This document shows, piece by piece, positions 14,627 through 29,322 of a stretch of 64,000 bases of DNA. Within the stretch, counting starts at the first letter, position 1, and each line of letters begins with the position of its first letter. The DNA lies in contig NZ_CP026115.2 in NCBI RefSeq assembly GCF_009883635.2, forward strand, positions 5,518,001-5,582,000. Reading direction: 5' to 3'. A program made the position numbers and the translations under genes. Under the pieces are notes generated by a model that saw only the letters and a program-made list of their open reading frames with translations, was not told the DNA's origin and made no database searches. The stretch comes from Pseudomonas putida. GTDB lineage: Bacteria; Pseudomonadota; Gammaproteobacteria; Pseudomonadales; Pseudomonadaceae.

Positions 14627-15031
14627 ATGAAAATTGGCGAACTGGCCCGACGCACGGGCCTCAGCGCATCGCGCATCCGTTTCTATGAAGCCAGCGGGCT
14701 GATCGAGGCCCGGCGCTTGGGTAACGGTTATCGGGATTACCCGGAGCAGGTGGTGAGGTCACTGGAGATCATCACTTGCGGGCAGCAGGCGGGGTTCAGC
14801 CTGGAGGAAATGCGCAAACTGACCAGCGCATCGGGTGACGGCGCAGCACGGCATGATCTGCTGCTGGCTAGCCTCAAGCGCAAGGTGACCGAAATCGAAG
14901 CCATGCAACTGCGCCTGGCGCAGAACCGCGCGCAATTGCTGGCGGTGATCGCCGGCATGCAGAGCAAACCACAGGGCATGGATTGCGACGAAAATGCCCA
15001 GCGCCTGATTGCCGGGTGGCAGGAAGGGTAG
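14627..15031 (+). CDS. MerR-family transcriptional regulator
   Basis: A 134-residue regulator with the N-terminal winged helix MKIGELARRTGLSASRIRFYE and a C-terminal coiled coil (about residues 75-110). It has two isolated cysteines (in EIITCGQ and GMDCDE) but no clear metal-site signature, so it probably senses an organic electrophile or redox signal rather than a metal. Its target is very likely the divergent oxidoreductase gene. Confidence 0.88.
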   Translation: MKIGELARRTGLSASRIRFYEASGLIEARRLGNGYRDYPEQVVRSLEIITCGQQAGFSLEEMRKLTSASGDGAARHDLLLASLKRKVTEIEAMQLRLAQNRAQLLAVIAGMQSKPQGMDCDENAQRLIAGWQEG

Positions 15032-15131: not shown

Positions 15132-15195
15132 TGTCATCAAATGAAAACCCGCTGTCGCCCGATGCGAAGCACCCCGCACCCCGAGCGCTTACATT
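15132..15195 (+). promoter_or_regulatory. Promoter element A: duplicated AraC-type site shared with 21742-21805
   Basis: Bases 15132-15174 match 21742-21784 at 35 of 43 positions without gaps. Within each copy two direct repeats of the form TGWC-N4-RATG-N-RAAR start exactly 21 bp apart (15132 and 15153). A TACATT -10-like box starts 58 bp after the element start (15190), the same spacing as in copy B. The -35 position reads AAGCAC, a poor match that implies activator dependence. The first gene starts at 15250. The remaining sequence between 15031 and 15250 shows nothing else. Confidence 0.75.
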
Positions 15196-15249
15196 CCAAT
15201 TACCCAGAACTGACGCCCTGCGTCCAGATCGATGATTGGAGAGACAAGC

Positions 15250-16230
15250 ATGTCCAAAGTCGTACGTTTCCATCAGACCGGTGGCCCCGAAGTACTGCGC
15301 TACGAGGAAGCCGAGGTTGGTGAGCCCGGCCCGGGCCAGGTGCGCCTGCGTCAGGTGGCAGTGGGCCTGAACTATGCCGATACCTATTTCCGCAATGGCA
15401 CTTACCCGATCCCGCTGCCTAATGGCATTGGCGTGGAAGCCTCCGGGGTGGTGCAGGCGGTAGGTGAGGGCGTGACCCAGGTGGCGGTGGGGGACCGGGT
15501 GACCTACACCGGTTTCCTCAACACCCTCGGCGCCTATTGCACCGAGCGGCTGATCCCCGCCGCAGCGCTGATCAAACTGCCGGAAACGATTGCCTTCGAG
15601 ACCGCCGCCGCCATGACCATGCGCGGCCTGACCGCGGCCTACCTGATGCGCCGGCTGTACGATTTCAAGCCTGGCGACACCGTGCTGCTGCATGCCGCAG
15701 CGGGTGGCGTCGGCCTGATCGTCGCGCAATGGGCGCGGCTGCTGGGGCTGAACGTGATCGGCACGGTGTCCACCGAGGCCAAGGCCGAAGTTGCCCGCGC
15801 CCATGGCTGCAACCAGATCATCAACTACAGCGTCGAGGACGTGGCCAGCCGCGTGCGTGAGCTCACTGATGGCGTCGGCGTCAACGTGGTGTTCGACAGC
15901 GTCGGCAAGAACACTTTCGTGGGCTCGCTCGATTCGCTCAAGCGCCGTGGCCTGATGGTCTGCGTCGGTACCGCCTCCGGCACCATCCCGCCGTTCGACC
16001 CACAGTTGCTGGCGATCAAGGGCTCGCTGCAGCTGACCCGCCCGGCACTGGCCGACTTCATTGCCGACCCTGCGGAAAAGGCCGACCTGGCCGGCGAGCT
16101 GTTCGACCATGTCAGCAGCGGCCGCATCCGCATCGAAATCAACCAGCACTATGCCCTGCAGGACGCCGTCCAGGCCCATCGTGATCTTGAAGCGCGCAGG
16201 ACCACTGGCTCGTCGATCTTCGTCATCTGA
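15250..16230 (+). CDS. NADPH:quinone oxidoreductase (zeta-crystallin type MDR)
   Basis: A 326-residue medium-chain dehydrogenase/reductase without structural-zinc cysteines. GVEASGVVQAVG and the nucleotide-binding AAAGGVGLIVAQWARLLG mark the Qor/zeta-crystallin subfamily, and RRTTGSSIFVI is a typical C-terminus. It reduces quinones or enones with NADPH in the cytoplasm. GGAGAG supports the start at 15250. It is the first gene of the 15.2-20.6 kb operon; the next start follows after 13 bp. Confidence 0.88.
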   Translation: MSKVVRFHQTGGPEVLRYEEAEVGEPGPGQVRLRQVAVGLNYADTYFRNGTYPIPLPNGIGVEASGVVQAVGEGVTQVAVGDRVTYTGFLNTLGAYCTERLIPAAALIKLPETIAFETAAAMTMRGLTAAYLMRRLYDFKPGDTVLLHAAAGGVGLIVAQWARLLGLNVIGTVSTEAKAEVARAHGCNQIINYSVEDVASRVRELTDGVGVNVVFDSVGKNTFVGSLDSLKRRGLMVCVGTASGTIPPFDPQLLAIKGSLQLTRPALADFIADPAEKADLAGELFDHVSSGRIRIEINQHYALQDAVQAHRDLEARRTTGSSIFVI

Positions 16231-16243
16231 AGAGGGCAACAGC

Positions 16244-17092
16244 ATGCACATCGAACAACTGACCTGTGCGATCGGCGCCGAGATCAGCGGCGTCAACCTG
16301 GCTGACGCGATCCACGATGACGACCTGTTCGAGCAGCTGCGCGCGCAGCTGCTCAAGCACCGAGTGCTGTTCTTGCGTGACCAGCACTTCAGCCGTGCCG
16401 AACACGTGGCCTTTGCCCGGCGCTTCGGCGACCTCGAAGACCACCCGGTGGCCGGCAGCGACCCGGACCACCCTGGCCTGGTGCAGATCTACAAGCGCCC
16501 TGACCAGCCCAACGACCGTTATGAAAACGCCTGGCACACCGATGCCACCTGGCGCGAAGCACCGCCCATGGGCTGCGTGCTGCGCTGCGTCGAATGCCCA
16601 CCGGTAGGTGGCGACACGATGTGGGCGAACATGGTGCTGGCCTACGAGAACCTGCCCGCAGACGTGAAGGCGAAGATCGAAGGCCTGCGCGCACGCCACA
16701 GCATCGAAGCCAGCTTCGGCGCCGCCATGCCGATCGAAAAGCGCCTGGCGCTCAAGGCGCAGTTCCCGGATGCCGAGCACCCGGTGGTGCGCACGCACCC
16801 GGACACCGGTGAGCAGGTGCTGTTCGTCAACGCCTTCACCACCCACTTCAGCAACTACCACACGCCCCAGCGTGTGCGTTTCGGCCAGGACGCCAACCCC
16901 GGCGCTGCCGACCTGCTGCGCTACCTGGTCAGCCAGGCCTACCTGCCCGAGTACCAGGTGCGATGGCGCTGGAAGCCCGACAGCGTGGCCATCTGGGACA
17001 ACCGCAGCACCCAGCATTACGCGGTCATGGACTACCCGCCATGCCATCGCAAGATGGAGCGTGCGGGGATCAAGGGCAGCCGCACTTTCTGA
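16244..17092 (+). CDS. TauD/TfdA-family 2-oxoglutarate-dependent dioxygenase
   Basis: A 282-residue Fe(II)/2-oxoglutarate dioxygenase. The iron ligands are visible as H98-T-D100 (in ENAWHTDATW) and H258 (in RSTQHYAV), and R269 is the likely 2-oxoglutarate anchor. GGDTMWANM is typical of the TauD/TfdA clade, whose members hydroxylate next to sulfonates, ethers or amines. The substrate is unknown. The start MHIEQ at 16244 follows the quinone reductase by 13 bp; a longer upstream reading overlaps that gene and is not protein-like. Confidence 0.86.
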   Translation: MHIEQLTCAIGAEISGVNLADAIHDDDLFEQLRAQLLKHRVLFLRDQHFSRAEHVAFARRFGDLEDHPVAGSDPDHPGLVQIYKRPDQPNDRYENAWHTDATWREAPPMGCVLRCVECPPVGGDTMWANMVLAYENLPADVKAKIEGLRARHSIEASFGAAMPIEKRLALKAQFPDAEHPVVRTHPDTGEQVLFVNAFTTHFSNYHTPQRVRFGQDANPGAADLLRYLVSQAYLPEYQVRWRWKPDSVAIWDNRSTQHYAVMDYPPCHRKMERAGIKGSRTF

Positions 17093-17148
17093 GTCAGCCG
17101 CCGCAAGAACGCGGCGCGCAGCACAATAACAATAGCGAGGACTACTGC

Positions 17149-18201
17149 ATGCAATTCTTCGACGATTCGTTGCACCCGGAAAACATGGAAAAGGTGGTGA
17201 TCACCGTCGCCCCGTATGGCCCGGAATGGATGCCCGAGGACTTCCCCGAAGACATCCCGCTGACCATGGAGGAGCAGGTACAGAAGGCAGTTGATTGCTA
17301 TGAAGCCGGCGCCACCGTGTTGCATCTGCATGTGCGCGAACTGGACGGCAAGGGCTCCAAGCGCCTGTCCAAGTTCAACGAGCTGATCGCCGGGGTGCGT
17401 GAAGCGGTACCGGACATGATCATCCAGGTCGGTGGCTCGATTTCCTTTGCCCCCGAGGGCGAAGGCGAGGCGGCCAAGTGGCTGTCCGACGACACCCGGC
17501 ACATGCTCGCCGAGCTGACCCCGCGTCCTGACCAGGTGACTGTGGCGATCAATACCACGCAGATGAACATCATGGAGCTGCTGTATCCAGAGTACCTGGA
17601 AGGCACCTCCCTGGCCCACCCGGCGATCCACGCTGCCTACAGCGAAATGACCGTGCCAGCCGGCCCGGCCTGGGTCCGCGAGCACCTGCGCCGTTTGCAG
17701 GCCAGTGGCATCCAGCCGCACTTCCAGCTGACCGGCATGCATGCCCTGGAAACCCTTGAGCGCATTGTCCGCCGAGGCGACTACATGGGCCCGCTGAACC
17801 TGACCTGGATCGGTATCGGTGGCGGTTTCGACGGCCCCAATCCGTTCAACTTCTTCAACTTCATCCACCGCGCGCCGGATGGTTGCACGCTGACTGCCGA
17901 ATCGCTGCTGAAGAACGTGCTGCCGTTCAACACCATGGCCTTGGCCATGGGCCTGCATCCACGCTGCGGCAACGAAGACACCATCATCGACCAGCATGGC
18001 AAGCGCTTCGGCTCGGTGCAGCAGATCCAGCAGACCGTACGTGTGGCCCATGAACTGGGCCGCGAAGTGGCCAACGGCAAAGAGGCCCGGGCCATCTACC
18101 GCATTGGCGAGCAGTACACCAGCATCGAAGAGACCCTCAAGGCCAACGGCATGGCGCCGAACCGCCAGTCGGGGCAGAAAGGCGTGCCGCAGCGGGCCTG
18201 A
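17149..18201 (+). CDS. BKACE-family beta-keto acid cleavage enzyme (DUF849)
   Basis: A 350-residue zinc-dependent enzyme of the DUF849 family, which includes 3-keto-5-aminohexanoate and dehydrocarnitine cleavage enzymes. They join a beta-keto acid with acetyl-CoA to give acetoacetate and a new acyl-CoA. ATVLHLHVRE carries the zinc-binding histidines, and MALAMGLHPRCGNEDTI is the usual C-terminal active-site segment. It is longer than the usual members of about 300 residues because of insertions such as GEGEAAKWLSDD. GAGGA precedes the ATG at 17149. The natural substrate is not deducible. Confidence 0.86.
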   Translation: MQFFDDSLHPENMEKVVITVAPYGPEWMPEDFPEDIPLTMEEQVQKAVDCYEAGATVLHLHVRELDGKGSKRLSKFNELIAGVREAVPDMIIQVGGSISFAPEGEGEAAKWLSDDTRHMLAELTPRPDQVTVAINTTQMNIMELLYPEYLEGTSLAHPAIHAAYSEMTVPAGPAWVREHLRRLQASGIQPHFQLTGMHALETLERIVRRGDYMGPLNLTWIGIGGGFDGPNPFNFFNFIHRAPDGCTLTAESLLKNVLPFNTMALAMGLHPRCGNEDTIIDQHGKRFGSVQQIQQTVRVAHELGREVANGKEARAIYRIGEQYTSIEETLKANGMAPNRQSGQKGVPQRA

Positions 18202-18210
18202 CAGGCAGGT

Positions 18211-18296
18211 CCGGCCTCTTCGCGGGCACGCCCGCTCCCACAGGGTTACCTGACGGCCTTGAACTTGTAGGAGCGGGCGTGCCCGCGAAGAGGCCA
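18211..18296. repeat. REP pair (P. putida type)
   Basis: Two inverted copies of the palindromic unit CCTCTTCGCGGGC...GCTCCCACAGG (18211-18243 and 18267-18296) lie in the 172-bp gap between the BKACE and MFS genes. Such pairs often stabilise or attenuate mRNA, so they may lower expression of the downstream part of the operon. Confidence 0.88.
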
Positions 18297-18373
18297 GGCC
18301 AAGCAGTAAAGATTTTGGCTGTTACCCATAAAAACAAGAACACCACCCACGCCAGATACCCCGAGGAGGCACC

Positions 18374-19678
18374 ATGGCCACCTATCTCGCCAGTGCCGAT
18401 ACACCCGGCACCGACACCGCGCACAGCATCCCCCGGCGCTATGCCTGGGTCGTCTTTGCCCTGACCTTCGGCCTGTTGATCTCCGACTACATGTCACGCC
18501 AGGTGCTCAATGCCGTATTCCCGCTGCTCAAGGGCGAGTGGGCCCTGAGCGATAGCCAGCTTGGCCTGCTCAGTGGCATCGTCGCGCTGATGGTCGGCCT
18601 GCTGACCTTCCCCTTGTCATTGCTCGCTGATCGTTTCGGCCGCGTGCGCAGCCTGGTGCTGATGGCCGTGCTGTGGAGCCTGGCGACCCTGGGCTGCGCC
18701 CTGGCGGAAAACTACCCGCAGATGTTCATCGCCCGTTTCCTGGTGGGTGTCGGCGAGGCCGCCTATGGCAGCGTCGGCATCGCCGTGGTGGTGGCAGTGT
18801 TCCCCCGTGACATGCGTTCGACCCTGGCCGGCGCCTTCATGGCCGGCGGCATGTTCGGCTCGGTGCTGGGCATGGCCCTGGGCGGTTTGCTGGCCCAGCA
18901 CCTGGGCTGGCGCTGGGCGTTCGCCGGCATGGCCCTGTTCGGCCTGGTGCTGGCGCTGCTGTATCCGCTGATCGTCAAGGAAGCTCGCATCACCGCCAAA
19001 TGCGTCGAACAGGCCCGGGGCAAGGCGAGTCGCCCGCTGCGCACCCTGTATGGCTCGCGCTCGGTGATCGCCGCGTATATCGGCAGTGGCCTGCAACTGT
19101 TCGTCGGCGGCACGGTCATCGTCTGGATGCCCAGCTACCTGAACCGTTACTACGCCATGGGCACCGACCGCGCCGGGGCGATAGCCGCCGTGATCGTGCT
19201 GTGCAGCGGCATCGGCACGATCCTCTGCGCGATGCTCTGTGACCGCCTGGGCCGTCAGCGCCCGGACCGCAAGATCAGCCTGGCCATCGGCTACTGCCTG
19301 GGCAGCTGCCTGCTGCTGTCGCTGGCCTTCGCGCTGCCGGCAGGTACCGCGCAACTGGTGCTGATCTGCCTGGGAATGATGATCGCAGTTGGCACCAACG
19401 GCCCGTCCAGTGCCATGGTCGCAAACCTGACCCATGCAGCCGTGCACGGCACTGCATTCGCCACCCTGACCCTGGCCAACAACCTGCTGGGCCTGGCGAC
19501 CGGCCCGCTGATCACCGGCCGTGTTTCCGACCTGATCGGCCTGCACGCTGCGTTCCAGCTGGTGCCGCTGATGAGTATCGCCGCCGCCGCCGTGTTTTTC
19601 ATCGCCAAACGCCATTACCACCGCGACATGGAGCGTCTGCAAGCATCGGTCAGTCGTACCGAGGAGTTGAGTTCGTGA
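18374..19678 (+). CDS. MFS transporter
   Basis: A 434-residue inner-membrane protein with about 12 helices. After a soluble N-terminus of about 20 residues, SDYMSRQVLNAVFPLLK begins helix 1, and LADRFGRVRSL is the MFS loop 2-3 motif. It resembles spinster-like/organic-acid MFS carriers. GAGGAGG precedes the start. It probably imports the substrate, or exports a product, of the surrounding catabolic operon. Confidence 0.86.
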   Translation: MATYLASADTPGTDTAHSIPRRYAWVVFALTFGLLISDYMSRQVLNAVFPLLKGEWALSDSQLGLLSGIVALMVGLLTFPLSLLADRFGRVRSLVLMAVLWSLATLGCALAENYPQMFIARFLVGVGEAAYGSVGIAVVVAVFPRDMRSTLAGAFMAGGMFGSVLGMALGGLLAQHLGWRWAFAGMALFGLVLALLYPLIVKEARITAKCVEQARGKASRPLRTLYGSRSVIAAYIGSGLQLFVGGTVIVWMPSYLNRYYAMGTDRAGAIAAVIVLCSGIGTILCAMLCDRLGRQRPDRKISLAIGYCLGSCLLLSLAFALPAGTAQLVLICLGMMIAVGTNGPSSAMVANLTHAAVHGTAFATLTLANNLLGLATGPLITGRVSDLIGLHAAFQLVPLMSIAAAAVFFIAKRHYHRDMERLQASVSRTEELSS

Positions 19679-20328
19679 AACAGACGTTGTCCGTCGAAGT
19701 GTTCTTCGATTTCATATGCCCGTGGTGCCTGATCGGTCAGCGGCAATTACAGGCTGCCCTGTTGCTGCTGCAGCGCGAGCAGCCACAGGTAGAGGTGACC
19801 TTGCACTGGCGGGGGGTGCAGCTGCTGCCTGGCTTGCCTGCCAATGGCCTGCCATTCCACGCCTTCTATACAGAGCGACTGGGCAGCGAGCAGGCCGTGC
19901 GTGAGCGCCAGGCCCAGGTGCGAGCAGCGGCCAGCGTGGTGGGTGAGGACATTGACTTCAGCCGTATCCGCCGCATGCCCAATACCGCCAATGCCCACCG
20001 CTTGCTGCAACGTGCGTCCGGCCTGCTCAGCGCCAGGCGCCTTGAAACCCTGTTGGCTCAGCTGTTCATTGCCTACTTCCATCAGGGTCGTGACCTGGGC
20101 GACAGCCGGGTATTGCTCGCCATTGCCCAGTCTTGTGGGCTGGAGGCGGCGCAAGTGGTCGATTGCCTGCGTGAAGATGGCAGCCCGTTTCTCGACGGTG
20201 CCGGGCGCGCGGGCAGCGCGGTGCCGTGTTTTCGCTTCAATGAGGGCCGCCTGATCCCCGGCGCGCAACCTGCCGATGTGCTGTTCGCCGCCATGCGTGA
20301 AGCCCTGCAGATACAGGTGCCGGCATGA
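19675..20328 (+). CDS. DsbA-family (FrnE/2-hydroxychromene isomerase-like) oxidoreductase
   Basis: A 217-residue thioredoxin-fold protein without a signal peptide. The active motif is C15-P-W-C18 in FFDFICPWCLIG, and AVPCFRF is the cis-Pro region. These features place it in the cytoplasmic DsbA-like FrnE group, which also contains 2-hydroxychromene-2-carboxylate isomerases. The GTG start overlaps the MFS stop, and the gene overlaps the Rieske gene by 4 bp, so all three appear translationally coupled. Confidence 0.83.
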   Translation: MKQTLSVEVFFDFICPWCLIGQRQLQAALLLLQREQPQVEVTLHWRGVQLLPGLPANGLPFHAFYTERLGSEQAVRERQAQVRAAASVVGEDIDFSRIRRMPNTANAHRLLQRASGLLSARRLETLLAQLFIAYFHQGRDLGDSRVLLAIAQSCGLEAAQVVDCLREDGSPFLDGAGRAGSAVPCFRFNEGRLIPGAQPADVLFAAMREALQIQVPA

Positions 20329-20642
20329 GCCGGCGTATCGCCCTGGCCGCGAGCCAGGTGCCCGAGCGTAACGGGCGTGTGCTGGTGGAGAGCCACGGCA
20401 AGAGCCTGGCCGTGTTCAATGTCGCCGATACCCTTTACGCGATCGACGACAGCTGCCCGCATCAGGGGGCCTCGCTGTGTGGCGGGCGCCTGGAGGGCCG
20501 GGTCATCCAGTGCTGCGCCCATGGCCTGCGTTTCGACCTGGCCAGCGGCTACCTGCTGCATTCGACAGCGCTCAAGGTCGAGACTTACGCGGTCGAGCGT
20601 CAGGATGGCGAAGTATTCATCGTGATCGCCTGCGAAGCCTGA
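20325..20642 (+). CDS. Rieske [2Fe-2S] ferredoxin
   Basis: A 105-residue Rieske protein. The cluster ligands are C44 and H46 (CPHQGASL) and C63 and H66 (CCAHGLRF). It is a stand-alone ferredoxin of the type that feeds electrons to Rieske oxygenases or other oxidoreductases. No Rieske oxygenase is encoded in this operon, so the partner is unclear. The ATG overlaps the preceding stop (ATGA). It is the last gene of the operon. Confidence 0.9.
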   Translation: MSRRIALAASQVPERNGRVLVESHGKSLAVFNVADTLYAIDDSCPHQGASLCGGRLEGRVIQCCAHGLRFDLASGYLLHSTALKVETYAVERQDGEVFIVIACEA

Positions 20643-20649
20643 TCACCCT

Positions 20650-21660
20650 TCAAGGCGCCTGCTCGGCGAGCCTGGCTCGCCAGCTGGCGGGTGGCATGCC
20701 GAACTGGGCGATGAACCAGCGGGTGAAAGAGCTTGGCATCGAGTAGCCGAGCAAGTCCGCAATGCGCCCCAGCGAATAGTTGGGGTTTTCCAGGTAACGC
20801 ATTACCAGATCGCGGCGCACGGTGTTGATCATCTCCTTGAAGGTCAGCCCGTCCTCTTCCAGGCGCCGTTGCAGCGTGCGCACATTCATGCCCTGGGTTT
20901 GCGCCACCTGCTCGATGGTGGCACGGCCCATGGGCAGCAGCAGGTAGATGGTCTTGCGCAGCTCCAGCTCCAGGGACGGCGTGCCACCGGCCGGCAGGGT
21001 GTCGAGGTAGCGCCGTGCCAGGCGGGCCATGGCCTCGTTGGCCTGGGGGCTGGCGCTGTCGAGGTCGGCGGCGGGGCAGACGATGCCGTTGAACTCGCTG
21101 CCGAACACCAGTTTGCAGCCGAAGATGCGCCGGTGGATGGCCAGGTCGGCCGGAGCGGCATGGGTGAAGTTGGCGCTGATCGGGTGCCAATGGGCCCCCA
21201 ACAGCGCCGCGCACAGGCGCAGCATCACGCCGATGGCAAGCTCGGTGGCCTGCCGGCTGCACGGCGCCCGGTCGTTGATCACTTCCTCACGAATGATGAC
21301 CGTCTTGCCGGCTTCCTCGACATGGATGGCCAGGGCGTCGTTAAGCAAGTGGCGATACTGCACGATCACTTCCAGGGCATCGCGCAGGTTGCGCTGGTGG
21401 CTGAGCAGCAGGCTGATTTCGCCGAAATCCGAGAGCTGGCGCGATTCGGCCATGCGCAGGCCGAAGGTTTCGCAACCGCTGATACGGGCCGACTCTTCCA
21501 GCAGGGTAATCACGTTGGCTGCCGGAATACGCCGGTTGGGGTCTTCGAGCAATGCAGCGCTAAGGCCCACCTGGGCGAGCAGGGGGGTGGGGTTCAGGCC
21601 CACGTGGCGGGACACTTCGAGGTAATTGGTCAGGCTGGCGGCGCGGACTAGGGCGGGCAT
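20650..21660 (-). CDS. AraC-family regulator (arabinose-binding-type N-domain)
   Basis: A 336-residue regulator. Residues about 1-210 form the all-purpose effector domain seen in OruR/ArgR-like AraC proteins (start MPALVRAASLTNYLEVSRHVGLNP). The C-terminal double helix-turn-helix runs from about residue 235 (TIEQVAQTQGMNVRTLQRRL) to SLGRIADLLGYSMPSSFTRWF. The gene converges on the Rieske gene 7 bp away and is divergent from the serine hydrolase gene. It sits between the two operons that share elements A and B and is the obvious candidate activator. Confidence 0.88.
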   Translation of the reverse strand: MPALVRAASLTNYLEVSRHVGLNPTPLLAQVGLSAALLEDPNRRIPAANVITLLEESARISGCETFGLRMAESRQLSDFGEISLLLSHQRNLRDALEVIVQYRHLLNDALAIHVEEAGKTVIIREEVINDRAPCSRQATELAIGVMLRLCAALLGAHWHPISANFTHAAPADLAIHRRIFGCKLVFGSEFNGIVCPAADLDSASPQANEAMARLARRYLDTLPAGGTPSLELELRKTIYLLLPMGRATIEQVAQTQGMNVRTLQRRLEEDGLTFKEMINTVRRDLVMRYLENPNYSLGRIADLLGYSMPSSFTRWFIAQFGMPPASWRARLAEQAP

Positions 21661-21741
21661 TTTTATTGTTTTTCGTCAGGCGGTCTGTGAGTTATAGCCT
21701 GCGTGTCATCAATAGAGAAGCACAAGGCCGAAAGATCAGCT

Positions 21742-21805
21742 TGTCATCAAATGAAAAGTCACTGACGCGCAATGTAAAGCACCCGTCGAGCCCCCTCTTT
21801 ACTGT
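21742..21805 (+). promoter_or_regulatory. Promoter element B: duplicated AraC-type site shared with 15132-15195
   Basis: Two direct repeats, TGTCATCAAATGAAAAG (21742) and TGACGCGCAATGTAAAG (21763), begin 21 bp apart and share TGWC-N4-AATG-W-AAAG. A TACTGT -10-like box starts at 21800, offset 58 as in element A, and the -35 position again reads AAGCAC. It faces the serine hydrolase gene at 21852 and lies 81 bp from the divergent AraC gene start, so the regulator may also control itself. Confidence 0.78.
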
Positions 21806-21851: not shown

Positions 21852-22418
21852 GTGGAAAAACTGCAAACCACCGCCACCGTGCTGATCATCCCTGGCCTGC
21901 GCGAGCCTGTCAGCGAGCACTGGCAAACCCTGCTCGAAGCGCGCCTGGCCAAGGTCCGCAGCGTGCCGCCGCTGCAGGTCGACGGGCTTAGCTGCAACGC
22001 CCGTGTCGAAGCGATCCAGCATGAACTGCAGCAGATCGACGGCGAGGTGGTGCTGGTGGCGCATAGCGCTGGCGTGCTGATGGTGGCCCACTGGGCTGCG
22101 CGCTATCAGCGGCCGATCAAAGGCGCCTTGCTGGCAGCTCCGCCAGACCTGCACGCCCAATGGCCGGCTCACTACCCCAGCCCGCAAAGACTCGCCGAGC
22201 AGGGATGGTCGCCGTTGCCGATGGCGCCGTTGCCGTTCCCCAGCATCGTCGCCGCCAGCAGCAACGACCACCTGGCCAGCTTCGACGCCGCCGGCGTCAT
22301 GGCTAAGGCCTGGGGCAGCGAGCTGATCGCCCTTGGGCCGGTCGGCCACCTCAACCCGGCAGCCGGTTTTGGCCCCTGGCCGATGGCTGAAAACCTGATT
22401 CGTCGCCTGGACCACTGA
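21852..22418 (+). CDS. RBBP9/YdeN-type serine hydrolase
   Basis: A 188-residue alpha/beta hydrolase from a GTG start. The catalytic triad is visible: S72 in AHSAG, D139 in SSNDHLAS and H166 in GPVGHLNPAAGFG, the standard RBBP9/YdeN pattern. Small size and lack of a signal peptide indicate a cytoplasmic esterase or amidase. As first gene of the 21.9-32.7 kb operon it may release the acid that is later activated by the CoA ligase; that role is inference. Confidence 0.86.
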   Translation: MEKLQTTATVLIIPGLREPVSEHWQTLLEARLAKVRSVPPLQVDGLSCNARVEAIQHELQQIDGEVVLVAHSAGVLMVAHWAARYQRPIKGALLAAPPDLHAQWPAHYPSPQRLAEQGWSPLPMAPLPFPSIVAASSNDHLASFDAAGVMAKAWGSELIALGPVGHLNPAAGFGPWPMAENLIRRLDH

Positions 22419-22504: not shown

Positions 22505-24460
22505 ATGCCAGAACACCGCATCCACCGTGCTGTGAAACCACAGCGCTGCCTGCTCGCCTGCGCCATCAGCCTGCTCAGCCTGCCCGGCGCGCAAGCCTTC
22601 GAAGTCACCACCGGCAGCGAAGACTGGGCCGTGCGCTTCGACAATACGGTCAAGTACAACTATGGCGTGCGCACCGAAAGCGCCGACAAACGCCTCCTCG
22701 GCACGCCCAACAGCAACGACGGTGACTTCAACTTCCGCAAGGCTGGCACCACGGTCACCAACCGGGTCGACCTGCTGACCGAGCTGGACGTGGTCTACCA
22801 GGGCAACACCGGCTTTCGCGTCAGCACCGCCAGCTGGTACGACAAGGCCTATGACAACACCGGCTCCAACAGCAACCCGTTCGTCAACGGCAACGGTGAC
22901 CAGTCCGGCATCAACCCCAGCCTCAACGGCCTGCCGGGTACCGGCGTACCACTGGGCAGCCCGCACCTGAGCAACTATGCCCAGCGCTACTACAGCGGCC
23001 CCTCTGGCGAAGTGCTGGATGCCTTCGTGTTCTTCAGCCGCGACGTCGGCGAGGAGTCGCAGATCAGCGCCAAAGTCGGCCAGCACAACCTGTTCTGGGG
23101 TGAAACCCTGCTCAACCCGGTGCACTCGCTGAGCTACGGCCAGTCCGGGCTGGACCTGGCCAAGCTCGCGGCCTCGCCAGGCACCGAGGCCAAGGAACTG
23201 TTCGTGCCGCGCAACCAGCTGTCCACGTCGTTCATGGTCAACCCTGAGCTGACCCTGGGGGCACAGTATTTCTTCGACTGGGATGCCGCGCGCCTGCCGG
23301 AAGCCGGCACCTACTATGGCGGTTCTGACGTGGTGGGCGAGGGCGCCCAGAGCTTCCTGCTCGGCCACACCGGCACCCCTGGGTTGATCCCGGTGCGCGG
23401 TGCGCTCACCACCATCCGCCGTGGCGACGACCTGACCCCACGCAAAAGCGGCGACTGGGGCGTCATGGCCAAGTGGTCGCCGGAATGGCTCGGCGGCACC
23501 CTGGGCTTCTACTACCGCAAGACCTCCGAGATCCTGCCCCAGGCCTGGCTCGACGCACGCGGCATGACCGTGGCCCGTGGCCCGTTCGGCGCGCCGCCTG
23601 CCAGCCGCCAGGGCGCGGTCGGCAACCTGTACAACTCGCTGCAGAGCACCACCTACCAGTTCGCCTACTCCGACGACATCGACATCTATGGCCTTAGCCT
23701 GTCCAAGGACATCGGCGGCATCAGCGTCGGCAGCGACCTCAACATTCGTCACCACATGCCCCTGGCGAGCATCCCGGCCATCGTCAGCGCCCCCGGCACC
23801 GCCGGCCTGGGCGGCGGCTTCGGCCTGCTGCCGCCACGCCTGGCCAGCAGCGGGGTGATCTACGATGTGCCCAAGGACGGCGACAGCCTGAGCGCCACCG
23901 GTGAAACCCTGCACTGGACCCTCAACGGCCTGATGACCATCGGCAACACGCCGCTGTTCGATTCGGCAACCCTGCTTGGCGAGCTGTTCTACAGCAACCT
24001 GCTCAAGCTCGATGGCCACAACGAGGCCTTGTACAAGGGCAAGAGCAGCTACCGCGGTATCGACCAGCCGACCCGCGACAACTGGGGCATCGCCGTCAAC
24101 TTCACGCCCACCTGGTTCCAGGTGATGCCCGGTATCGACCTGAGCATGCCGCTGTCGGTCAACGTCGGCATCGACGGTGTGTCGCCGGTGCAGGGCGGCG
24201 GTGCCAAGGACACTGGCAACTATGCGGTCGGCGTCAGCGCGGCCATCTACAACCAGTACTTCGTCGACCTCAAGTACGTCGACAGCTTCGGCAAGACCCA
24301 GTCCTGCAAGGATGGCCAGACCGACGGCAGCACGCCGAACGCCCTCGACGGCGAACAGGACTACACCTGCTACGGCGGCGGCTACGCCTCCTTCTCCGGC
24401 GGTGGTGCCACCACCGAAGACCGTGGCGCCCTGTACCTGACCCTCAAGACCACGTTCTGA
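22505..24460 (+). CDS. DUF1302 outer-membrane protein
   Basis: A 651-residue exported protein with a signal peptide ending in GAQA before FEVTTGSEDW. The sequence has the alternating beta-strand character of a large outer-membrane barrel and ends in YLTLKTTF with a terminal Phe. DUF1302 proteins are nearly always encoded next to DUF1329 proteins in clusters for hydrophobic compounds and are thought to act in uptake across the outer membrane. An in-frame start about 34 bp upstream in another frame is not protein-like. Confidence 0.9.
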   Translation: MPEHRIHRAVKPQRCLLACAISLLSLPGAQAFEVTTGSEDWAVRFDNTVKYNYGVRTESADKRLLGTPNSNDGDFNFRKAGTTVTNRVDLLTELDVVYQGNTGFRVSTASWYDKAYDNTGSNSNPFVNGNGDQSGINPSLNGLPGTGVPLGSPHLSNYAQRYYSGPSGEVLDAFVFFSRDVGEESQISAKVGQHNLFWGETLLNPVHSLSYGQSGLDLAKLAASPGTEAKELFVPRNQLSTSFMVNPELTLGAQYFFDWDAARLPEAGTYYGGSDVVGEGAQSFLLGHTGTPGLIPVRGALTTIRRGDDLTPRKSGDWGVMAKWSPEWLGGTLGFYYRKTSEILPQAWLDARGMTVARGPFGAPPASRQGAVGNLYNSLQSTTYQFAYSDDIDIYGLSLSKDIGGISVGSDLNIRHHMPLASIPAIVSAPGTAGLGGGFGLLPPRLASSGVIYDVPKDGDSLSATGETLHWTLNGLMTIGNTPLFDSATLLGELFYSNLLKLDGHNEALYKGKSSYRGIDQPTRDNWGIAVNFTPTWFQVMPGIDLSMPLSVNVGIDGVSPVQGGGAKDTGNYAVGVSAAIYNQYFVDLKYVDSFGKTQSCKDGQTDGSTPNALDGEQDYTCYGGGYASFSGGGATTEDRGALYLTLKTTF

Positions 24461-24498: not shown

Positions 24499-25857
24499 AT
24501 GAACCACGTGAAAACCCTGTTGGCCACTTGCCTGTCGCTGGCTGCCCTCAACGCGGCCCACGCCGCCGTATCCCCTGACCAGGCTGCCAAGCTGGGCAAG
24601 AGCCTGACCACCCTGGGCGCGGAAAAGGCCGCCAATGCCGATGGCTCGATCCCGGCCTACCAGGGCGGCCTGCTGACGCCACCGGCCGGCTATCAGAGCG
24701 GCGCCAGCATGCGCCCGGACCCGTTCGCCAGCGAGAAGCCGCTGCTGGTCATCGATGGCAAGAACGCCGAGCAGTACAAGGGCCAGCTGACCGCCACCAC
24801 CCTTGAACTGCTCAAGCGCTTCCCGACCATGCGCGTCGATGTCTACCCGACCCACCGCAGCGTGGCGCTGCCTCAGGCGGTGCTGGACAACACCCTGAAG
24901 AACGCCACCGGCGCCAAGAGCCAGGAGGGCGGCACCGCGGTGGACAATGTGCTGCCGGGCATCCCGTTCCCGATCCCGCAGAACGGCGCCGAGGCAATGT
25001 GGAACTTCCTGCTGCGCTACCAAGGCGTGAGCATGACCGCCAAGTACGATTCGTGGAACGTCGACGCCGCCGGCAAGCCGTCGCTGTCGACCACCGGCCA
25101 GGCCAACATCAGCTACCCGATCTACGAAGACATGAACAAGCCGATCGGCGCCAAGGACACCTACTACCAGATGAAACTGGTGTACACCGGCCCCGCCCGC
25201 CGCGCCGGCGAAGCGATGATGCTGCGCGATGCCGCCAACCCGCTGGTGCAGCCACGCAGCGCCTGGCAGTACCTGCCTGGCCAGCGCCGGGTCAAGCTGG
25301 CGCCGAACCTGGCCTACGACACGCCCAACCCGGGGACCTCGGGGTCTGGCACCTACGATGACGTGTTCGTCTTCAACGGCGCCCTCGACCGCTACGACTG
25401 GACCCTGGTCGGCAAGCAGGAAATGTACGTGCCGTACAACACCTACCAACTGACCTACAACACCGATGTCAAGCAGCTGACCACCGCCAACCACCTCGCC
25501 CCGCAGTTCGTGCGCTGGGAAAAACACCGCGTGTGGGTGGTGGAAGGCAAGCTCAAGGACGGCGCGCGGCACATCTACCACAAGCGCCGCTTCTACCTCG
25601 ACGAGGACAGCTGGGTGGCCCTGGCCTCCGACCAGTATGACGCCCGCGGCCAGCTGTACCGTGGCTCGTTCGCCTTCCTCACCCAGAGCTACGACAAGCA
25701 GACCCCGGACGCCACGCCATTCATGATCTACGACCTGGTTGGCGGTACCTACAACCTCAATGGCGTGGTCGGCGCCTACGGTGGCATCCGCTACATCGAC
25801 CCGCTGTCCAAGGCCCAGTGGTCGCCTGAATCGCTGGCCGGCAATGGCATTCGCTGA
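24499..25857 (+). CDS. DUF1329 periplasmic/outer-membrane protein
   Basis: A 452-residue protein with a signal peptide (ALNAAHA before AVSPDQ). Family features include LGKSLTTLGAEKAANADGSIPAYQGG at the mature N-terminus, IPFPIPQNGAEAMWN, and RRFYLDEDSWVALASDQYD. The fold is LolB-like, so it may carry lipids or hydrophobic molecules in the periplasm. It is 38 bp downstream of the DUF1302 gene, the usual pairing. Confidence 0.9.
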   Translation: MNHVKTLLATCLSLAALNAAHAAVSPDQAAKLGKSLTTLGAEKAANADGSIPAYQGGLLTPPAGYQSGASMRPDPFASEKPLLVIDGKNAEQYKGQLTATTLELLKRFPTMRVDVYPTHRSVALPQAVLDNTLKNATGAKSQEGGTAVDNVLPGIPFPIPQNGAEAMWNFLLRYQGVSMTAKYDSWNVDAAGKPSLSTTGQANISYPIYEDMNKPIGAKDTYYQMKLVYTGPARRAGEAMMLRDAANPLVQPRSAWQYLPGQRRVKLAPNLAYDTPNPGTSGSGTYDDVFVFNGALDRYDWTLVGKQEMYVPYNTYQLTYNTDVKQLTTANHLAPQFVRWEKHRVWVVEGKLKDGARHIYHKRRFYLDEDSWVALASDQYDARGQLYRGSFAFLTQSYDKQTPDATPFMIYDLVGGTYNLNGVVGAYGGIRYIDPLSKAQWSPESLAGNGIR

Positions 25858-25879
25858 GCGCATGGCGCAGAGGTTCGCA

Positions 25880-26857
25880 ATGTCTGTCTGCAAACGATGC
25901 AGCGTGGCGATGCTGCTCTGGGGCGCGCTGCAAGGCGCGCCCCAGGCGGCGCCCTTCACCGACGTGCTGGACCTGCCGGCCATGCCCAGTGCATTGGCCG
26001 CAGCCAGCGCGCTGCGGGATGTGACCCGGGCCGGTGAGCGCCTGGTGGCGGTGGGCCCGCGTGGGCACATCCTGTACTCCGACGACCATGGCGCGCACTG
26101 GCAGCAGGCTCAGGTGCCGGTGAGCGCCGACCTCAATGCCGTCAGTTTCCCCTCCGCCGAGCACGGCTGGGCGGTGGGCAACGACGGCGTGGTGCTGTAC
26201 AGCCGCGACGGCGGCCAGCACTGGGAAAAGCAGCTCGATGGCCGTGAACTGGCCGATGGCACCGACAGCACCTTGCTCGATGTGTGGTTCAGCGATGACC
26301 AGCACGGCTATGCCGTGGGCCTGTTCAACCTACTGCTGCGCACCGAGGACGGTGGCCAGCACTGGCTACCGTGGCAGGCGCACAGCGACAACCCGCAAGG
26401 CCTGCACCTGACCAGCCTGGCGCCAGTCGGTGACGCGCTGTACATCACTGGCGAGCAAGGCCTGCTGCTCAAGCTGGATGCCGCCAGTCAACGCTTCGAG
26501 CAGGTTCCCACGCCGTATGCCGGCACCTTGTTCGGTGCCGTCGGCAAACCCGGCCTGCTGCTGATCTACGGCTTGCGTGGCAATGCCTACCGCAGCACCG
26601 ATGGCGGCCAGCAATGGCAACCGGTCAGCAGTGGGGTCAAGACCAGCCTCACGGCGGCCAGCCTTGGCGCAGGCGGCGATGTCTGGCTGGCCAGCCAGGC
26701 CGGCGACCTGCTGCTCAGCCGCGACGGCGGCGCCAGCTTCAGCCCGCAGCCACAAGCCACACGTGGCCCGGTGACCGCACTGGCCAACGACGCCGGTACC
26801 GGCCTGGTACTGGTGGGCGAGCGGGGCGTGCGTACCTTCGACGAGAGAAGACCCTGA
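25880..26857 (+). CDS. YCF48-like beta-propeller protein
   Basis: A 325-residue exported protein with repeated BNR/YCF48 units (ILYSDDHGAHWQQ, VLYSRDGGQHWEK, LLRTEDGGQHWLP, AYRSTDGGQQWQP, LLLSRDGGASFSP), giving a six- or seven-bladed propeller. A hydrophobic N-terminal segment (CSVAMLLWGALQGAPQAA) is a signal peptide. The start at 25880 has AGAGG upstream; longer readings overlap the DUF1329 gene. Such proteins are commonly co-encoded with MMPL/RND transporters, perhaps as assembly factors. Confidence 0.86.
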   Translation: MSVCKRCSVAMLLWGALQGAPQAAPFTDVLDLPAMPSALAAASALRDVTRAGERLVAVGPRGHILYSDDHGAHWQQAQVPVSADLNAVSFPSAEHGWAVGNDGVVLYSRDGGQHWEKQLDGRELADGTDSTLLDVWFSDDQHGYAVGLFNLLLRTEDGGQHWLPWQAHSDNPQGLHLTSLAPVGDALYITGEQGLLLKLDAASQRFEQVPTPYAGTLFGAVGKPGLLLIYGLRGNAYRSTDGGQQWQPVSSGVKTSLTAASLGAGGDVWLASQAGDLLLSRDGGASFSPQPQATRGPVTALANDAGTGLVLVGERGVRTFDERRP

Positions 26858-29322
26858 TGGCCGATATCCGCCAAGACCCACTGCCGGTGATCCATAACCT
26901 CGCCGACTTCGACCGCCGTTCGGGCAATCGCCTGGAACGCCTGGTGTTCAACCACCGCCTGGCCTTCGTGCTGTGCATGCTGCTGACCACCCTGGTGCTC
27001 GGCTACATGGCACTGACCCGCCTTGAACTGCGCCCCAGCTTCGAGAAAATGTTGCCGCAGAGCCACCCCTACATCCAGAACTACCTGGCAAACCGCCAGT
27101 CGCTGCGCGGCCTTGGCAACTCGGTGCGGGTGGTGGTGCAGAACACCCGCGGCGACATCTTCGACCCCGACTACCTGCAGACACTGCGCCAGATCAACGA
27201 CGAGCTGTTTCTCAGTGACGGTGTCGACCGCGCCTGGATGAAGTCGCTGTGGAGCCCGGCGGTGCGCTGGACCGAGGTCACCGAAGAAGGCTTCCAGGGC
27301 GGCCCGGTGATGCCTGACAGCTACCAGGGCGGCGCCGCCGACATCGAGCAGCTACGCCAGAACATCGAGCGCGCCAATATCGTCGGCAGCCTGGTGGCCC
27401 GCGACTTCAAGTCGAGCATGCTGATCGTGCCACTGCTGGACCAGGATTCGGCCACTGGCAAAGGCATCGACTACCACGCCTTCTCGCAAAAGCTCGAACA
27501 GCTGCGCAACCAGTACCAGGCCAGCGGCCAGTACCAGATCCACGTGATCGGCTTCGCCAAGCTGATGGGCGACCTGATCGACGGGCTGATCGAGGTAATG
27601 GCGTTCTTTGCTCTGGCCGTGCTCACCAGCCTGGTGATCATCTACCTGTACACCCGCTGCGTGCGCAGCACCTTGCTGGTGGTGCTGTGTTCGCTGATCG
27701 CGGTGGTCTGGCAGCTGGGCATCGTCGCCTGGCTGGGCTATGCCATCGACCCGTACTCGATCCTGGTGCCGTTCCTGATCTTCGCCATCGGCGTCTCCCA
27801 CGCCGCGCAGAAGATGAACGGCATCCTCCAGGACATCGGCCGCGGTACCCACCGGCAGATCGCCGCACGCTACACCTTCCGCCGCCTGTTCGTGGCCGGG
27901 GTCACCGCGCTGCTGGCGGACGCGGTGGGCTTTGCCGTGCTGATGCTGATCGATATCCCGGTGATCCAGGACCTGGCCATCACCGCCAGCATCGGCGTGG
28001 CGGTGCTGATTTTCACCTCGCTGCTGCTGATGCCGGTGGCGCTGTCGTATGTCGGCGTGGGCCGCAAGGCTGCCGAGCGCGCCTTGTACATCGATGCCCG
28101 TGCGGCGCAGCACCGTGGCTTTGGCCGCTTGTGGGACCTGCTCGACCGCTTCACCGAACGCAAGTGGGCCACGGGCGCCTTGCTGGTGGCCGTGGTCCTT
28201 GCCGCCGTCGGTGTGTGGGGCAGCCTGCAGTTGAAGATCGGCGACCTCGACAGCGGTGCCCCGGAGCTGCGCGCCGACTCGCGCTACAACCGCGACAACG
28301 CCTTCATCACCGGCCACTACGCGCTGAGCAGCGACACCTTCGCGGTGATGGTCAAGACGCCCCCGGAAGGCTGCCTGCGCTACCAGACGCTGGTGCTGGC
28401 CGACCGCCTGGCCTGGGAGCTGCAACAGCTGCCCGGGGTACAGACCACGTTGTCGCTGGCCAACGCAGTGCGCCAGATCACCGCCGGCACGTACGAAGGC
28501 AACCCGCGCCTGAACAGCCTGCAGCGCAACCAGGACGTGCTCAACTACGCGGCCCAGCAAGCCTCGGTCAACACCCCGGAGCTGTTCAACAACGACTGTT
28601 CGCTGATGCCGGTGATCGCCTATCTCAAGGACCACCGTGCCGACACCCTGGCGCAGGTTGCCGCCAGCGCCGAGCGCTTCGCCCAGGCCAACAGTGGCGA
28701 TGATCGCCAGTTCCTGCTGGCCGCCGGCAGCGCCGGTATCGAGGCCGCGACCAATATCGTCGTGCGCGAGGCCAACCACCGCATGCTGTTGCTGGTGTAC
28801 CTGGCGGTTACCGTGTTCTGCCTGTTCACCTTCCGCAGCTGGCGCGCCACCCTGGTGGCGATCCTGCCACTGATGCTCACCTCACTGCTGTGCGAAGCGC
28901 TGATGGTGGCCATGGGCATCGGCGTCAAGGTTGCCACCTTGCCGGTGATCGCCCTAGGTGTGGGCATTGGCGTCGACTACGCCTTGTACCTGCTCAGCGT
29001 GCAGCTTCATCACCAGCGTGCCGGCCTGCCGCTGGCCCAGGCCTACCAGAAGGCCGTGGCCTTCACCGGGCGCGTGGTCGGCCTGGTAGGCATCACCCTG
29101 GCCGCTGGCGTGGTCGGCTGGGCTTGGTCGCCGATCAAGTTCCAGGCCGACATGGGCCTGCTGCTGACCTTCATGTTCCTCTGGAACATGCTCGGCGCGC
29201 TGGTGCTGATCCCCGCGCTGTCGCACTTCCTCTTGCGCGGCCATGGCGCCCCGGCGGCAAGCCGGGCCCGTGCCGCGTCATGTTCGTCAACCCAAGAAAC
29301 CGAGTGTTCGCCTCATGTCTGA
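26857..29322 (+). CDS. RND/MMPL-family transporter
   Basis: An 821-residue inner-membrane protein with two MMPL halves. Helix 1 (about residues 32-52) precedes a large periplasmic domain; a bundle of five or six helices follows (DGLIEVMAFFALAVLTSLVIIYLY onward), then a second periplasmic domain and a second bundle containing GVGIGVDYALYLLS. It belongs to the single-component HpnN-like group that moves lipids or other hydrophobic molecules. The ATG overlaps the stop of the YCF48-like gene (TGATG), and the 3' end overlaps the next gene by 8 bp. Confidence 0.88.
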   Translation: MADIRQDPLPVIHNLADFDRRSGNRLERLVFNHRLAFVLCMLLTTLVLGYMALTRLELRPSFEKMLPQSHPYIQNYLANRQSLRGLGNSVRVVVQNTRGDIFDPDYLQTLRQINDELFLSDGVDRAWMKSLWSPAVRWTEVTEEGFQGGPVMPDSYQGGAADIEQLRQNIERANIVGSLVARDFKSSMLIVPLLDQDSATGKGIDYHAFSQKLEQLRNQYQASGQYQIHVIGFAKLMGDLIDGLIEVMAFFALAVLTSLVIIYLYTRCVRSTLLVVLCSLIAVVWQLGIVAWLGYAIDPYSILVPFLIFAIGVSHAAQKMNGILQDIGRGTHRQIAARYTFRRLFVAGVTALLADAVGFAVLMLIDIPVIQDLAITASIGVAVLIFTSLLLMPVALSYVGVGRKAAERALYIDARAAQHRGFGRLWDLLDRFTERKWATGALLVAVVLAAVGVWGSLQLKIGDLDSGAPELRADSRYNRDNAFITGHYALSSDTFAVMVKTPPEGCLRYQTLVLADRLAWELQQLPGVQTTLSLANAVRQITAGTYEGNPRLNSLQRNQDVLNYAAQQASVNTPELFNNDCSLMPVIAYLKDHRADTLAQVAASAERFAQANSGDDRQFLLAAGSAGIEAATNIVVREANHRMLLLVYLAVTVFCLFTFRSWRATLVAILPLMLTSLLCEALMVAMGIGVKVATLPVIALGVGIGVDYALYLLSVQLHHQRAGLPLAQAYQKAVAFTGRVVGLVGITLAAGVVGWAWSPIKFQADMGLLLTFMFLWNMLGALVLIPALSHFLLRGHGAPAASRARAASCSSTQETECSPHV

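What the first reader, a model, noticed from the sequence alone, without database searches (positions are those of the whole stretch)
15132..21805. A duplicated AraC-type promoter element defines a two-operon regulon
Bases 15132-15174 and 21742-21784 agree at 35 of 43 positions, with no gaps. Each holds two direct repeats (TGWC-N4-RATG-N-RAAR) starting exactly 21 bp apart, the geometry of XylS/AraC sites. In both copies a TAC-type -10 box begins 58 bp from the element start, the -35 reads AAGCAC, and a + strand operon starts 66-78 bp later. An AraC-family gene lies between the two operons, divergent from copy B. Together this predicts one activator controlling 13 structural genes. I know of no described regulon with this site.
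Basis: partly seen in the sequence, partly recalled or inferred. Interest (0 to 1): 0.85.

Follow-up and report, generated by a model that had tools for sequence, protein, structure and literature searches.

The report
Shared switch for two Pseudomonas operons
Two neighbouring gene clusters in a Pseudomonas carry the same 43-base control sequence, kept in related species beside the same regulator gene, so one protein very probably switches on thirteen genes for handling an unknown, probably greasy compound; the kind of switch is familiar, but we found no description of this one.

Summary
Copies A (15132-15174) and B (21742-21784) agree at 35 of 43 positions; each has two direct half-sites 21 bp apart, a -35-like AAGCAC, a 17-bp spacer and a -10. 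A sequence model built from 56 sites (A and B included) finds only these two places in the 6.19-Mb genome (next E 0.285). In 80 loci with the regulator, the element precedes qor in 55 of 56 eligible loci and the hydrolase gene in 59 of 59, and stays with these genes through rearrangements; half-sites are 78-89% identical where upstream flanks are at chance (27%). Of 398 Pseudomonas genomes, all 80 with the regulator have the site; five others have a strong one, and all five look like deletion scars. Corrections: the half-site type and 5-bp gap resemble the known ARG box of Pseudomonas ArgR, so the site class is not new; a third half-site (21704-21719) beside the regulator was missed. Verdict: new member of a known kind; substrate unknown.

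The parts
15132..15174 (+). element A: half-sites 15132-15147 and 15153-15168, start to start 21 bp
   Evidence: own-genome model hit 57.8 bits, E 7e-15 (A is in the model's training set); site before qor in 55 of 56 eligible loci
15167..15172 (+). -35-like AAGCAC, overlaps the last two bases of the proximal half-site
   Evidence: sequence; columns 36-41 are 75% identical between 43 non-redundant qor-side sites
15190..15195 (+). -10-like TACATT of operon A, 17 bp after the -35-like hexamer
   Evidence: 76% identical between 43 non-redundant sites; first two and last bases of the hexamer nearly invariant
15250..16230 (+). qor, zinc-type NADPH:quinone reductase family, first gene of operon A
16244..17092 (+). 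TauD-family 2-oxoglutarate-dependent dioxygenase
   Evidence: closest solved chain 5vn6, 542.6 bits
17149..18201 (+). beta-keto acid cleavage enzyme (BKACE, formerly DUF849)
18374..19678 (+). MFS transporter; in L049 and L052 the element lies directly before its orthologue
19675..20328 (+). DsbA-fold oxidoreductase
20325..20642 (+). Rieske-domain protein, last gene of operon A
20650..21660 (-). AraC-family regulator, Arabinose_bd (PF12625) plus HTH_18, divergent from copy B
   Evidence: closest solved chain M. tuberculosis VirS 8rcx, E 1e-33; next relative in own genome only 32% identical
21704..21719 (+). third half-site TGTCATCAATAGAGAA, 44 bases from the regulator's start, 38 bp before element B; candidate autoregulatory operator
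21742..21784 (+). element B: half-sites 21742-21757 and 21763-21778, start to start 21 bp
   Evidence: own-genome model hit 61 bits, E 7e-16 (B is in the model's training set); site before the hydrolase gene in 59 of 59 eligible loci
21777..21782 (+). -35-like AAGCAC of operon B
   Evidence: sequence; 82% identical between 43 non-redundant sites
21800..21805 (+). -10-like TACTGT of operon B
   Evidence: 85% identical between 43 non-redundant sites
21852..22418 (+). serine hydrolase (PF06821), first gene of operon B
22505..24460 (+). DUF1302 protein, outer membrane by analogy with AmeA
24499..25857 (+). DUF1329 LolA-like protein, periplasmic by analogy with AmeB
25811..26857 (+). YCF48/BNR-repeat protein (start codon not settled)
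26851..29322 (+). MMPL/RND-type transporter (start codon not settled)
29324..31084 (+). acyl-CoA dehydrogenase with PF12806 C-terminal domain (start codon not settled)
31096..32742 (+). AMP-forming acyl-CoA ligase, last gene of operon B

Best explanation
Elements A and B are tandem operators of the AraC-family regulator encoded at 20650-21660. With its inducer bound, a regulator dimer occupies the two direct half-sites; the proximal one abuts a weak -35, so RNA polymerase is recruited to a 17-bp-spaced -10 (class II activation). This turns on operon A (6 genes) and operon B (7 genes) together. Operon B looks like a four-part envelope transport system for a hydrophobic compound plus hydrolase, CoA ligase and acyl-CoA dehydrogenase; operon A adds a dioxygenase, a beta-keto acid cleavage enzyme, reductase, carrier and redox proteins. 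The inducer is probably the substrate or an early product. The third half-site next to the regulator gene probably serves autoregulation. Shown here: the element, its two places in this genome, its conservation, and its linkage to regulator and genes. Inferred: binding, activation, operon extents, substrate class, autoregulation.
For: Only two model hits in 6.19 Mb, before the two operons (both copies were among the 56 training sites, so the news is the absence of others). Site before qor in 55 of 56 and before the hydrolase gene in 59 of 59 eligible loci. Identity between non-redundant sites: half-sites 78-89%, -10 76-85%, the 80 bases upstream 27%. The element tracks the genes: gaps of 3.6-3.9 kb in L032, L053, L057, L059 and 1.9-2.1 kb in L044, L054, L089 between regulator and hydrolase gene leave it 114-127 bp before the hydrolase gene; operon A is inverted in L084 with its element; in Polaromonas L083 and Cupriavidus L085-L087 the regulator is divergent from qor with a weaker element (22.6-30.4 bits) between them; element directly before the MFS gene in L049 and L052. 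Regulator (E<=1e-80) in 80 of 398 Pseudomonas genomes, all 80 with a site; BKACE (E<=1e-130) in 79 of 398, all within those 80. Strong sites (E<1e-6) in 5 further genomes with no regulator above 33% identity, no BKACE at that level and no hydrolase above 36%; there the cluster beside the site is truncated or gone and the site itself is often damaged.
Against: No binding, footprint or expression data. Regulator, operons and elements are inherited together, so co-occurrence alone cannot name the binding protein. The matrix and model were built from the sites they then count, and the 43-site identity figures leave out six rows under 29 bits, so those figures lean upward. L058 keeps regulator and qor but its qor element is reduced to about one half-site. 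A REP-like palindrome lies between BKACE and the MFS gene, so operon A may be two transcripts. G390 has both elements but its regulator gene reads as two overlapping frames.
Confidence: 0.87

Rival explanations
1. The sites are bound by ArgR (or another resident AraC/XylS protein with the same half-site type), and the neighbouring regulator acts elsewhere.
For: Half-site ends TGTC...AA and the 5-bp gap equal the published ARG box TGTCGCN6GNAA in tandem; A's proximal half starts TGTCGC.
Against: No half-site has the G at position 13 of the ARG box, and the conserved core of these sites is not part of that consensus. The model built on these sites finds nothing else in the genome below E 0.28, whereas 61 and 41 putative ArgR sites are reported for KT2440. 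A strong site is in 80 of 80 genomes with the adjacent regulator and in 5 of 318 without it. That argR is general in Pseudomonas is recalled; ArgR was not searched here.
Confidence: 0.05
2. A and B are only relics of one duplicated promoter, conserved by descent without being operators.
For: The two copies share 35 of 43 bases and the same -10 distance.
Against: Flanking bases are at chance identity (27%) between species while half-sites stay at 78-89%; A-type and B-type versions each keep their own differences (TGTCG..GATG against TGACG..AATG) over many species.
Confidence: 0.02
3. The regulator is a repressor of both operons through these sites.
For: Sites overlap the -35 position, where bound protein could block polymerase; third half-site near the regulator gene.
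Against: The -35 is far from TTGACA and mostly reads AAGCGC or AAGCAC, as expected where an activator replaces it; tandem half-sites abutting the -35 are the class II activator layout (recalled for AraC/XylS); SphR, a similar system, activates (passages).
Confidence: 0.06

Closest known systems
ARG box / ArgR regulon of Pseudomonas aeruginosa and P. alloputida KT2440 (PMC10963909, passages seen)
   Same: AraC/XylS-family regulator; 16-bp half-site starting TGTC and ending AA, in tandem with 5 bp between
   Different: Core bases differ, position 13 is not G, target genes differ; the paper says the 5-bp spacing is clear only at argG in KT2440. That ArgR is another subfamily is recalled
SphR regulon of P. 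aeruginosa (PMC3900636, passages seen)
   Same: AraC-family activator, two direct half-sites beginning TG-N-C, 21-23 bp period, small regulon, lipid-type inducer
   Different: Half-site TGNCCSNNRNNSNCC; targets sphA, sphBCD, cerN; the SphR sequence was not compared
M. tuberculosis VirS (PDB 8rcx, 8rcw)
   Same: Closest solved relative of the regulator, over residues 3-329, E 1e-33
   Different: Far in sequence and host; its target genes were not compared
AmeABCD of Castellaniella defragrans (PMC6394551, one passage seen) and PP_0765/PP_0766/PP_2018/PP_2019 of P. putida (PMC10866462, passages seen)
   Same: DUF1302, DUF1329, a further periplasmic-type protein and an RND or efflux transporter linked to hydrophobic compounds
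   Different: Other operons; the window set sits with a CoA ligase and acyl-CoA dehydrogenase

Membership tests
AraC/XylS-family activator with tandem operator | C-terminal HTH_18/AraC DNA-binding domain | tested here: met
   PF12833 61.1 bits, cut-off 33.6
AraC/XylS-family activator with tandem operator | two direct half-sites about 21 bp apart next to the -35 | tested here: met
AraC/XylS-family activator with tandem operator | regulator binds the site and changes transcription | not testable with these tools
   needs gel shift, footprint and mutant
Arabinose_bd (PF12625) subfamily regulators | PF12625 ligand domain | tested here: met
   170.1 bits, cut-off 27.6
QhpR, GliR, CypR (NCBIfam equivalogs) | score above the curated cut-off | tested here: not met
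   194.2 of 250, 132.3 of 570 and 86.7 of 500 bits
ArgR / ARG box | half-site TGTCGCN6GNAA | tested here: not met
   none of the four half-sites has G at position 13; layout otherwise alike (sequence; consensus)
AmeABCD-type transport system | DUF1302, DUF1329, a third protein and an RND-type transporter encoded together | tested here: met
   the third protein is placed in COG4447 in the paper, YCF48/BNR here, and sequences were not compared
AmeABCD-type transport system | transport of a hydrophobic substrate | not testable with these tools
   no assay

The most novel reading that the evidence does not exclude
One AraC-type switch coordinates a complete, undescribed module for a hydrophobic compound: uptake through a four-part envelope system, CoA activation and breakdown by a dioxygenase plus beta-keto acid cleavage pathway, and in some relatives also a chemoreceptor and a polyester (PHA) synthase. 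In six loci an extra tandem element (24.9-30.7 bits) lies before a PAS-MCP gene next to the regulator, and all six also hold a PHA synthase gene; in G204 an element lies before a PHA synthase gene.
Probability: 0.45. Interest if true: 0.6.

Novelty: new member of a known kind. Interest (0 to 1): 0.45.

Why it matters
It gives a sharply defined, testable regulon around a catabolic cluster whose substrate is unknown, present in 80 of the 398 Pseudomonas genomes sampled. The operator can serve as a reporter to find the substrate, and the regulator as a candidate biosensor. The deletion scars and moved promoters also show how a regulon is lost and extended.

Tried and rejected
Weak matches at 5.798-5.805 Mb of the own genome were read as a possible second locus; in L167 tblastn at 1e-8 finds none of the 17 window proteins, and the long ORFs show no operon of this kind, so they look like chance. 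The MerR gene 14627-15031 was considered as regulator of operon A; it is found upstream of qor in only 7 of the 80 loci (L015, L017, L018, L023, L025, L026, L081; several loci end too near qor to show it), so it does not track the element.

Substrate: paper searches by domain or enzyme name (0, 2, 7 and 0 papers) showed no cluster of this make-up in the listings and passages seen; searches on the motif or family (0 papers each; 50, 55: 5 and 4) led only to ArgR, SphR and MtlR work. PMC12134079 and PMC4514859 were seen as passages and added nothing decisive. BKACE and TauD solved relatives did not fix a substrate. Motif strings TGTCATCAAATG, TGTCATGAAATG and TGTCATCAAAAG occur in 7 papers of the held open library, none about bacterial regulation by title; subscription papers are mostly not held.

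Limits: relatedness of the genomes was not modelled; the 80 loci (best 80 of 90 relatives; some genomes give two loci) overlap with the 398 genomes; one search used stricter filters that lose weak matches.
Full report
What is there. The window is 5518001-5582000 of a single-contig 6.19-Mb genome whose named close relatives are Pseudomonas. Element A (15132-15174) and element B (21742-21784) match at 35 of 43 positions. Each is TGTCATCAAATGAAAA, five bases, then TGTCGCCCGATGCGAA (A) or TGACGCGCAATGTAAA (B), followed by GCAC. The -35-like AAGCAC takes positions 36-41 and the -10 (TACATT or TACTGT) positions 59-64, a 17-bp spacer. Chance does not explain it: the binomial expectation for such a pair anywhere in the window is 0.0004, four Markov simulations gave at most 30 of 43, and the tandem pattern is found only at A and B with 0 in 100 shuffles. 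Genome-wide the tandem pattern with up to two mismatches gives A, B and one two-mismatch place at 5416015.

Genes. Operon A: qor, TauD-type dioxygenase, BKACE, MFS carrier, DsbA-fold protein, Rieske protein. Regulator: PF12625 plus HTH_18, on the minus strand. Operon B: serine hydrolase, DUF1302, DUF1329, YCF48-like, MMPL/RND, acyl-CoA dehydrogenase, acyl-CoA ligase. Operon extents rest on gene spacing, not transcripts.

Comparison. One scan of genome contigs (84,980 species genomes) with the regulator gave 90 relatives, of which the best 80 loci were kept, identity 53-97%. Window proteins were placed on them by tblastn. A 43-column matrix from A and B alone found 144 places of at least 22 bits in 76 of the 80 loci: 69 before the hydrolase gene (66 loci; L035, L055 and L063 have a second, weaker place), 57 before qor, 4 before a ligase gene (in L083 only 38% identical to the window's), 2 before DUF1302, 2 before the MFS gene and 10 not assigned to a window gene. 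With stricter conditions (gene start present, at least 60% identity, at least 200 nt upstream) the count is 55 of 56 for qor and 59 of 59 for the hydrolase gene. The miss is L058, whose upstream region keeps about one half-site. The other loci without a place of 22 bits, L066, L093 and L094, show neither qor nor the hydrolase gene in the stretch held.

Conservation. In 43 non-redundant contexts per side, mean pairwise identity is 0.27 in the 80 bases before the element, 0.87-0.89 in the distal half-site, 0.78-0.81 in the proximal, 0.45-0.60 in the five-base gap, 0.43-0.44 just after the -35-like hexamer, and 0.76-0.85 in the -10. Six rows under 29 bits were dropped first (L084, L085, L086 for qor; the three second places for the hydrolase gene), and all rows were found by likeness to A and B, so the element figures lean upward; the -10 lies outside the 43-column matrix and was not selected on. 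Information content shows the same sharp onset at the first T.

Rearrangements. The element stays with the gene when the neighbourhood changes: long insertions between regulator and hydrolase gene (L032, L044, L053, L054, L057, L059, L089), inverted operon A (L084), regulator divergent from qor (L083, L085-L087), element before the MFS gene (L049, L052) or a ligase gene (L061, L083, L090, L092).

Own genome and genus. A sequence-only model of 66 positions from 56 sites, A and B among them, finds A and B and nothing else below E 0.28 in the own genome. On 398 Pseudomonas genomes, drawn evenly from the genus, it matches 93 at E<=0.01. The 80 genomes with the regulator at E<=1e-80 are all among them. 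Of the other 13, eight have only weak matches (E 0.002-0.01; not followed further) and five strong ones. BKACE at E<=1e-130 is in 79 of 398, all among the 80; the one of the 80 without it, G223, is 73% complete.

The five exceptions. G108, G135, G163, G228 and G301 have no regulator above 33% identity, no BKACE at E<=1e-130 and no hydrolase above 36%. G301: site, then qor residues 1-72, then a match to the ligase C-terminus. G135: site, qor, TauD 1-112. G228: one site with a base missing from a half-site before qor and TauD 1-234; one site without its -10, beside a lipoprotein-like gene 85% identical to the one next to an intact site in G151; and a third, weak match. G163: site with a base missing and an altered -10, next to the methyltransferase gene that lies just beyond operon B in the window. 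G108: site without its -10, beside a gene that starts like the one flanking the intact site in G285 (compared by eye; function not searched). These read as deletion scars of the module, seen within about 19 kb of each site. No sequence was put back.

Third half-site. Between regulator and B the window holds TGTCATCAATAGAGAA at 21704-21719. In 61 loci where the gap could be examined, the best extra half-site exceeds the 95% level of shuffled gaps in 52 or 50 (new shuffles, one of them on the minus strand). With a threshold of 13 bits, chosen after seeing the data, it is present in 46 of 61, always on the plus strand, 58-73 bases from the regulator start in 35 of these 46 and 44 in the window. 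Its distance to B varies by clade (36-38, 49-65, 86 and more), and several species have an inverted partner nearer the regulator. I read it as an operator of the regulator's own promoter. In six loci a tandem element at about this place precedes a PAS-MCP chemoreceptor gene (Pfam run on L044 and L053, the other four by 69-92% identity), so it may also be a relic of that promoter.

What is known. The ARG box of P. aeruginosa ArgR is TGTCGCN6GNAA in tandem with 5 bp between (PMC10963909, passages); SphR uses TGNCCSNNRNNSNCC direct repeats 6-8 bp apart (PMC3900636, passages). The layout is therefore familiar and only the exact site and regulon look new. The transport genes have the make-up of AmeABCD (PMC6394551, one passage) and of PP_0765/0766/2018/2019, essential for Tween 20 use (PMC10866462, passages). 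Searches for the motif strings and for domain combinations found no description in the held open library.

Judgement. Observation confirmed, interpretation supported by strong comparative evidence, mechanism inferred from a well-known family. Substrate and inducer are open.

Noticed in passing
window 21704-21719: Third conserved half-site beside the regulator gene, with an inverted partner in several relatives; candidate autoregulatory operator.
   Followed up: partly
L044, L053, L054, L057, L059, L089 (insertions upstream of the regulator): An extra tandem element precedes a PAS-MCP chemoreceptor gene; a PHA synthase gene lies in 6 of these 6 loci and a short-chain dehydrogenase gene in 5 of 6.
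   Followed up: partly
L181 / L196 (G204:C10): An element lies before a PHA synthase gene, near qor, TauD and BKACE copies and a regulator only 40% identical to the window's.
   Followed up: partly
window 18213-18297 and about 51061: REP-like GC-rich palindrome between BKACE and the MFS gene, with a similar copy elsewhere in the window; may split operon A transcripts.
   Followed up: no
G390:C1:5055534-5056537: Regulator gene reads as two overlapping frames although two strong elements are found: recent frameshift or sequence error.
   Followed up: no
L188, L190, L193, L195: Weaker sites share a related but different tandem motif and a common downstream stretch, perhaps of a sister regulator (by eye).
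   Followed up: no
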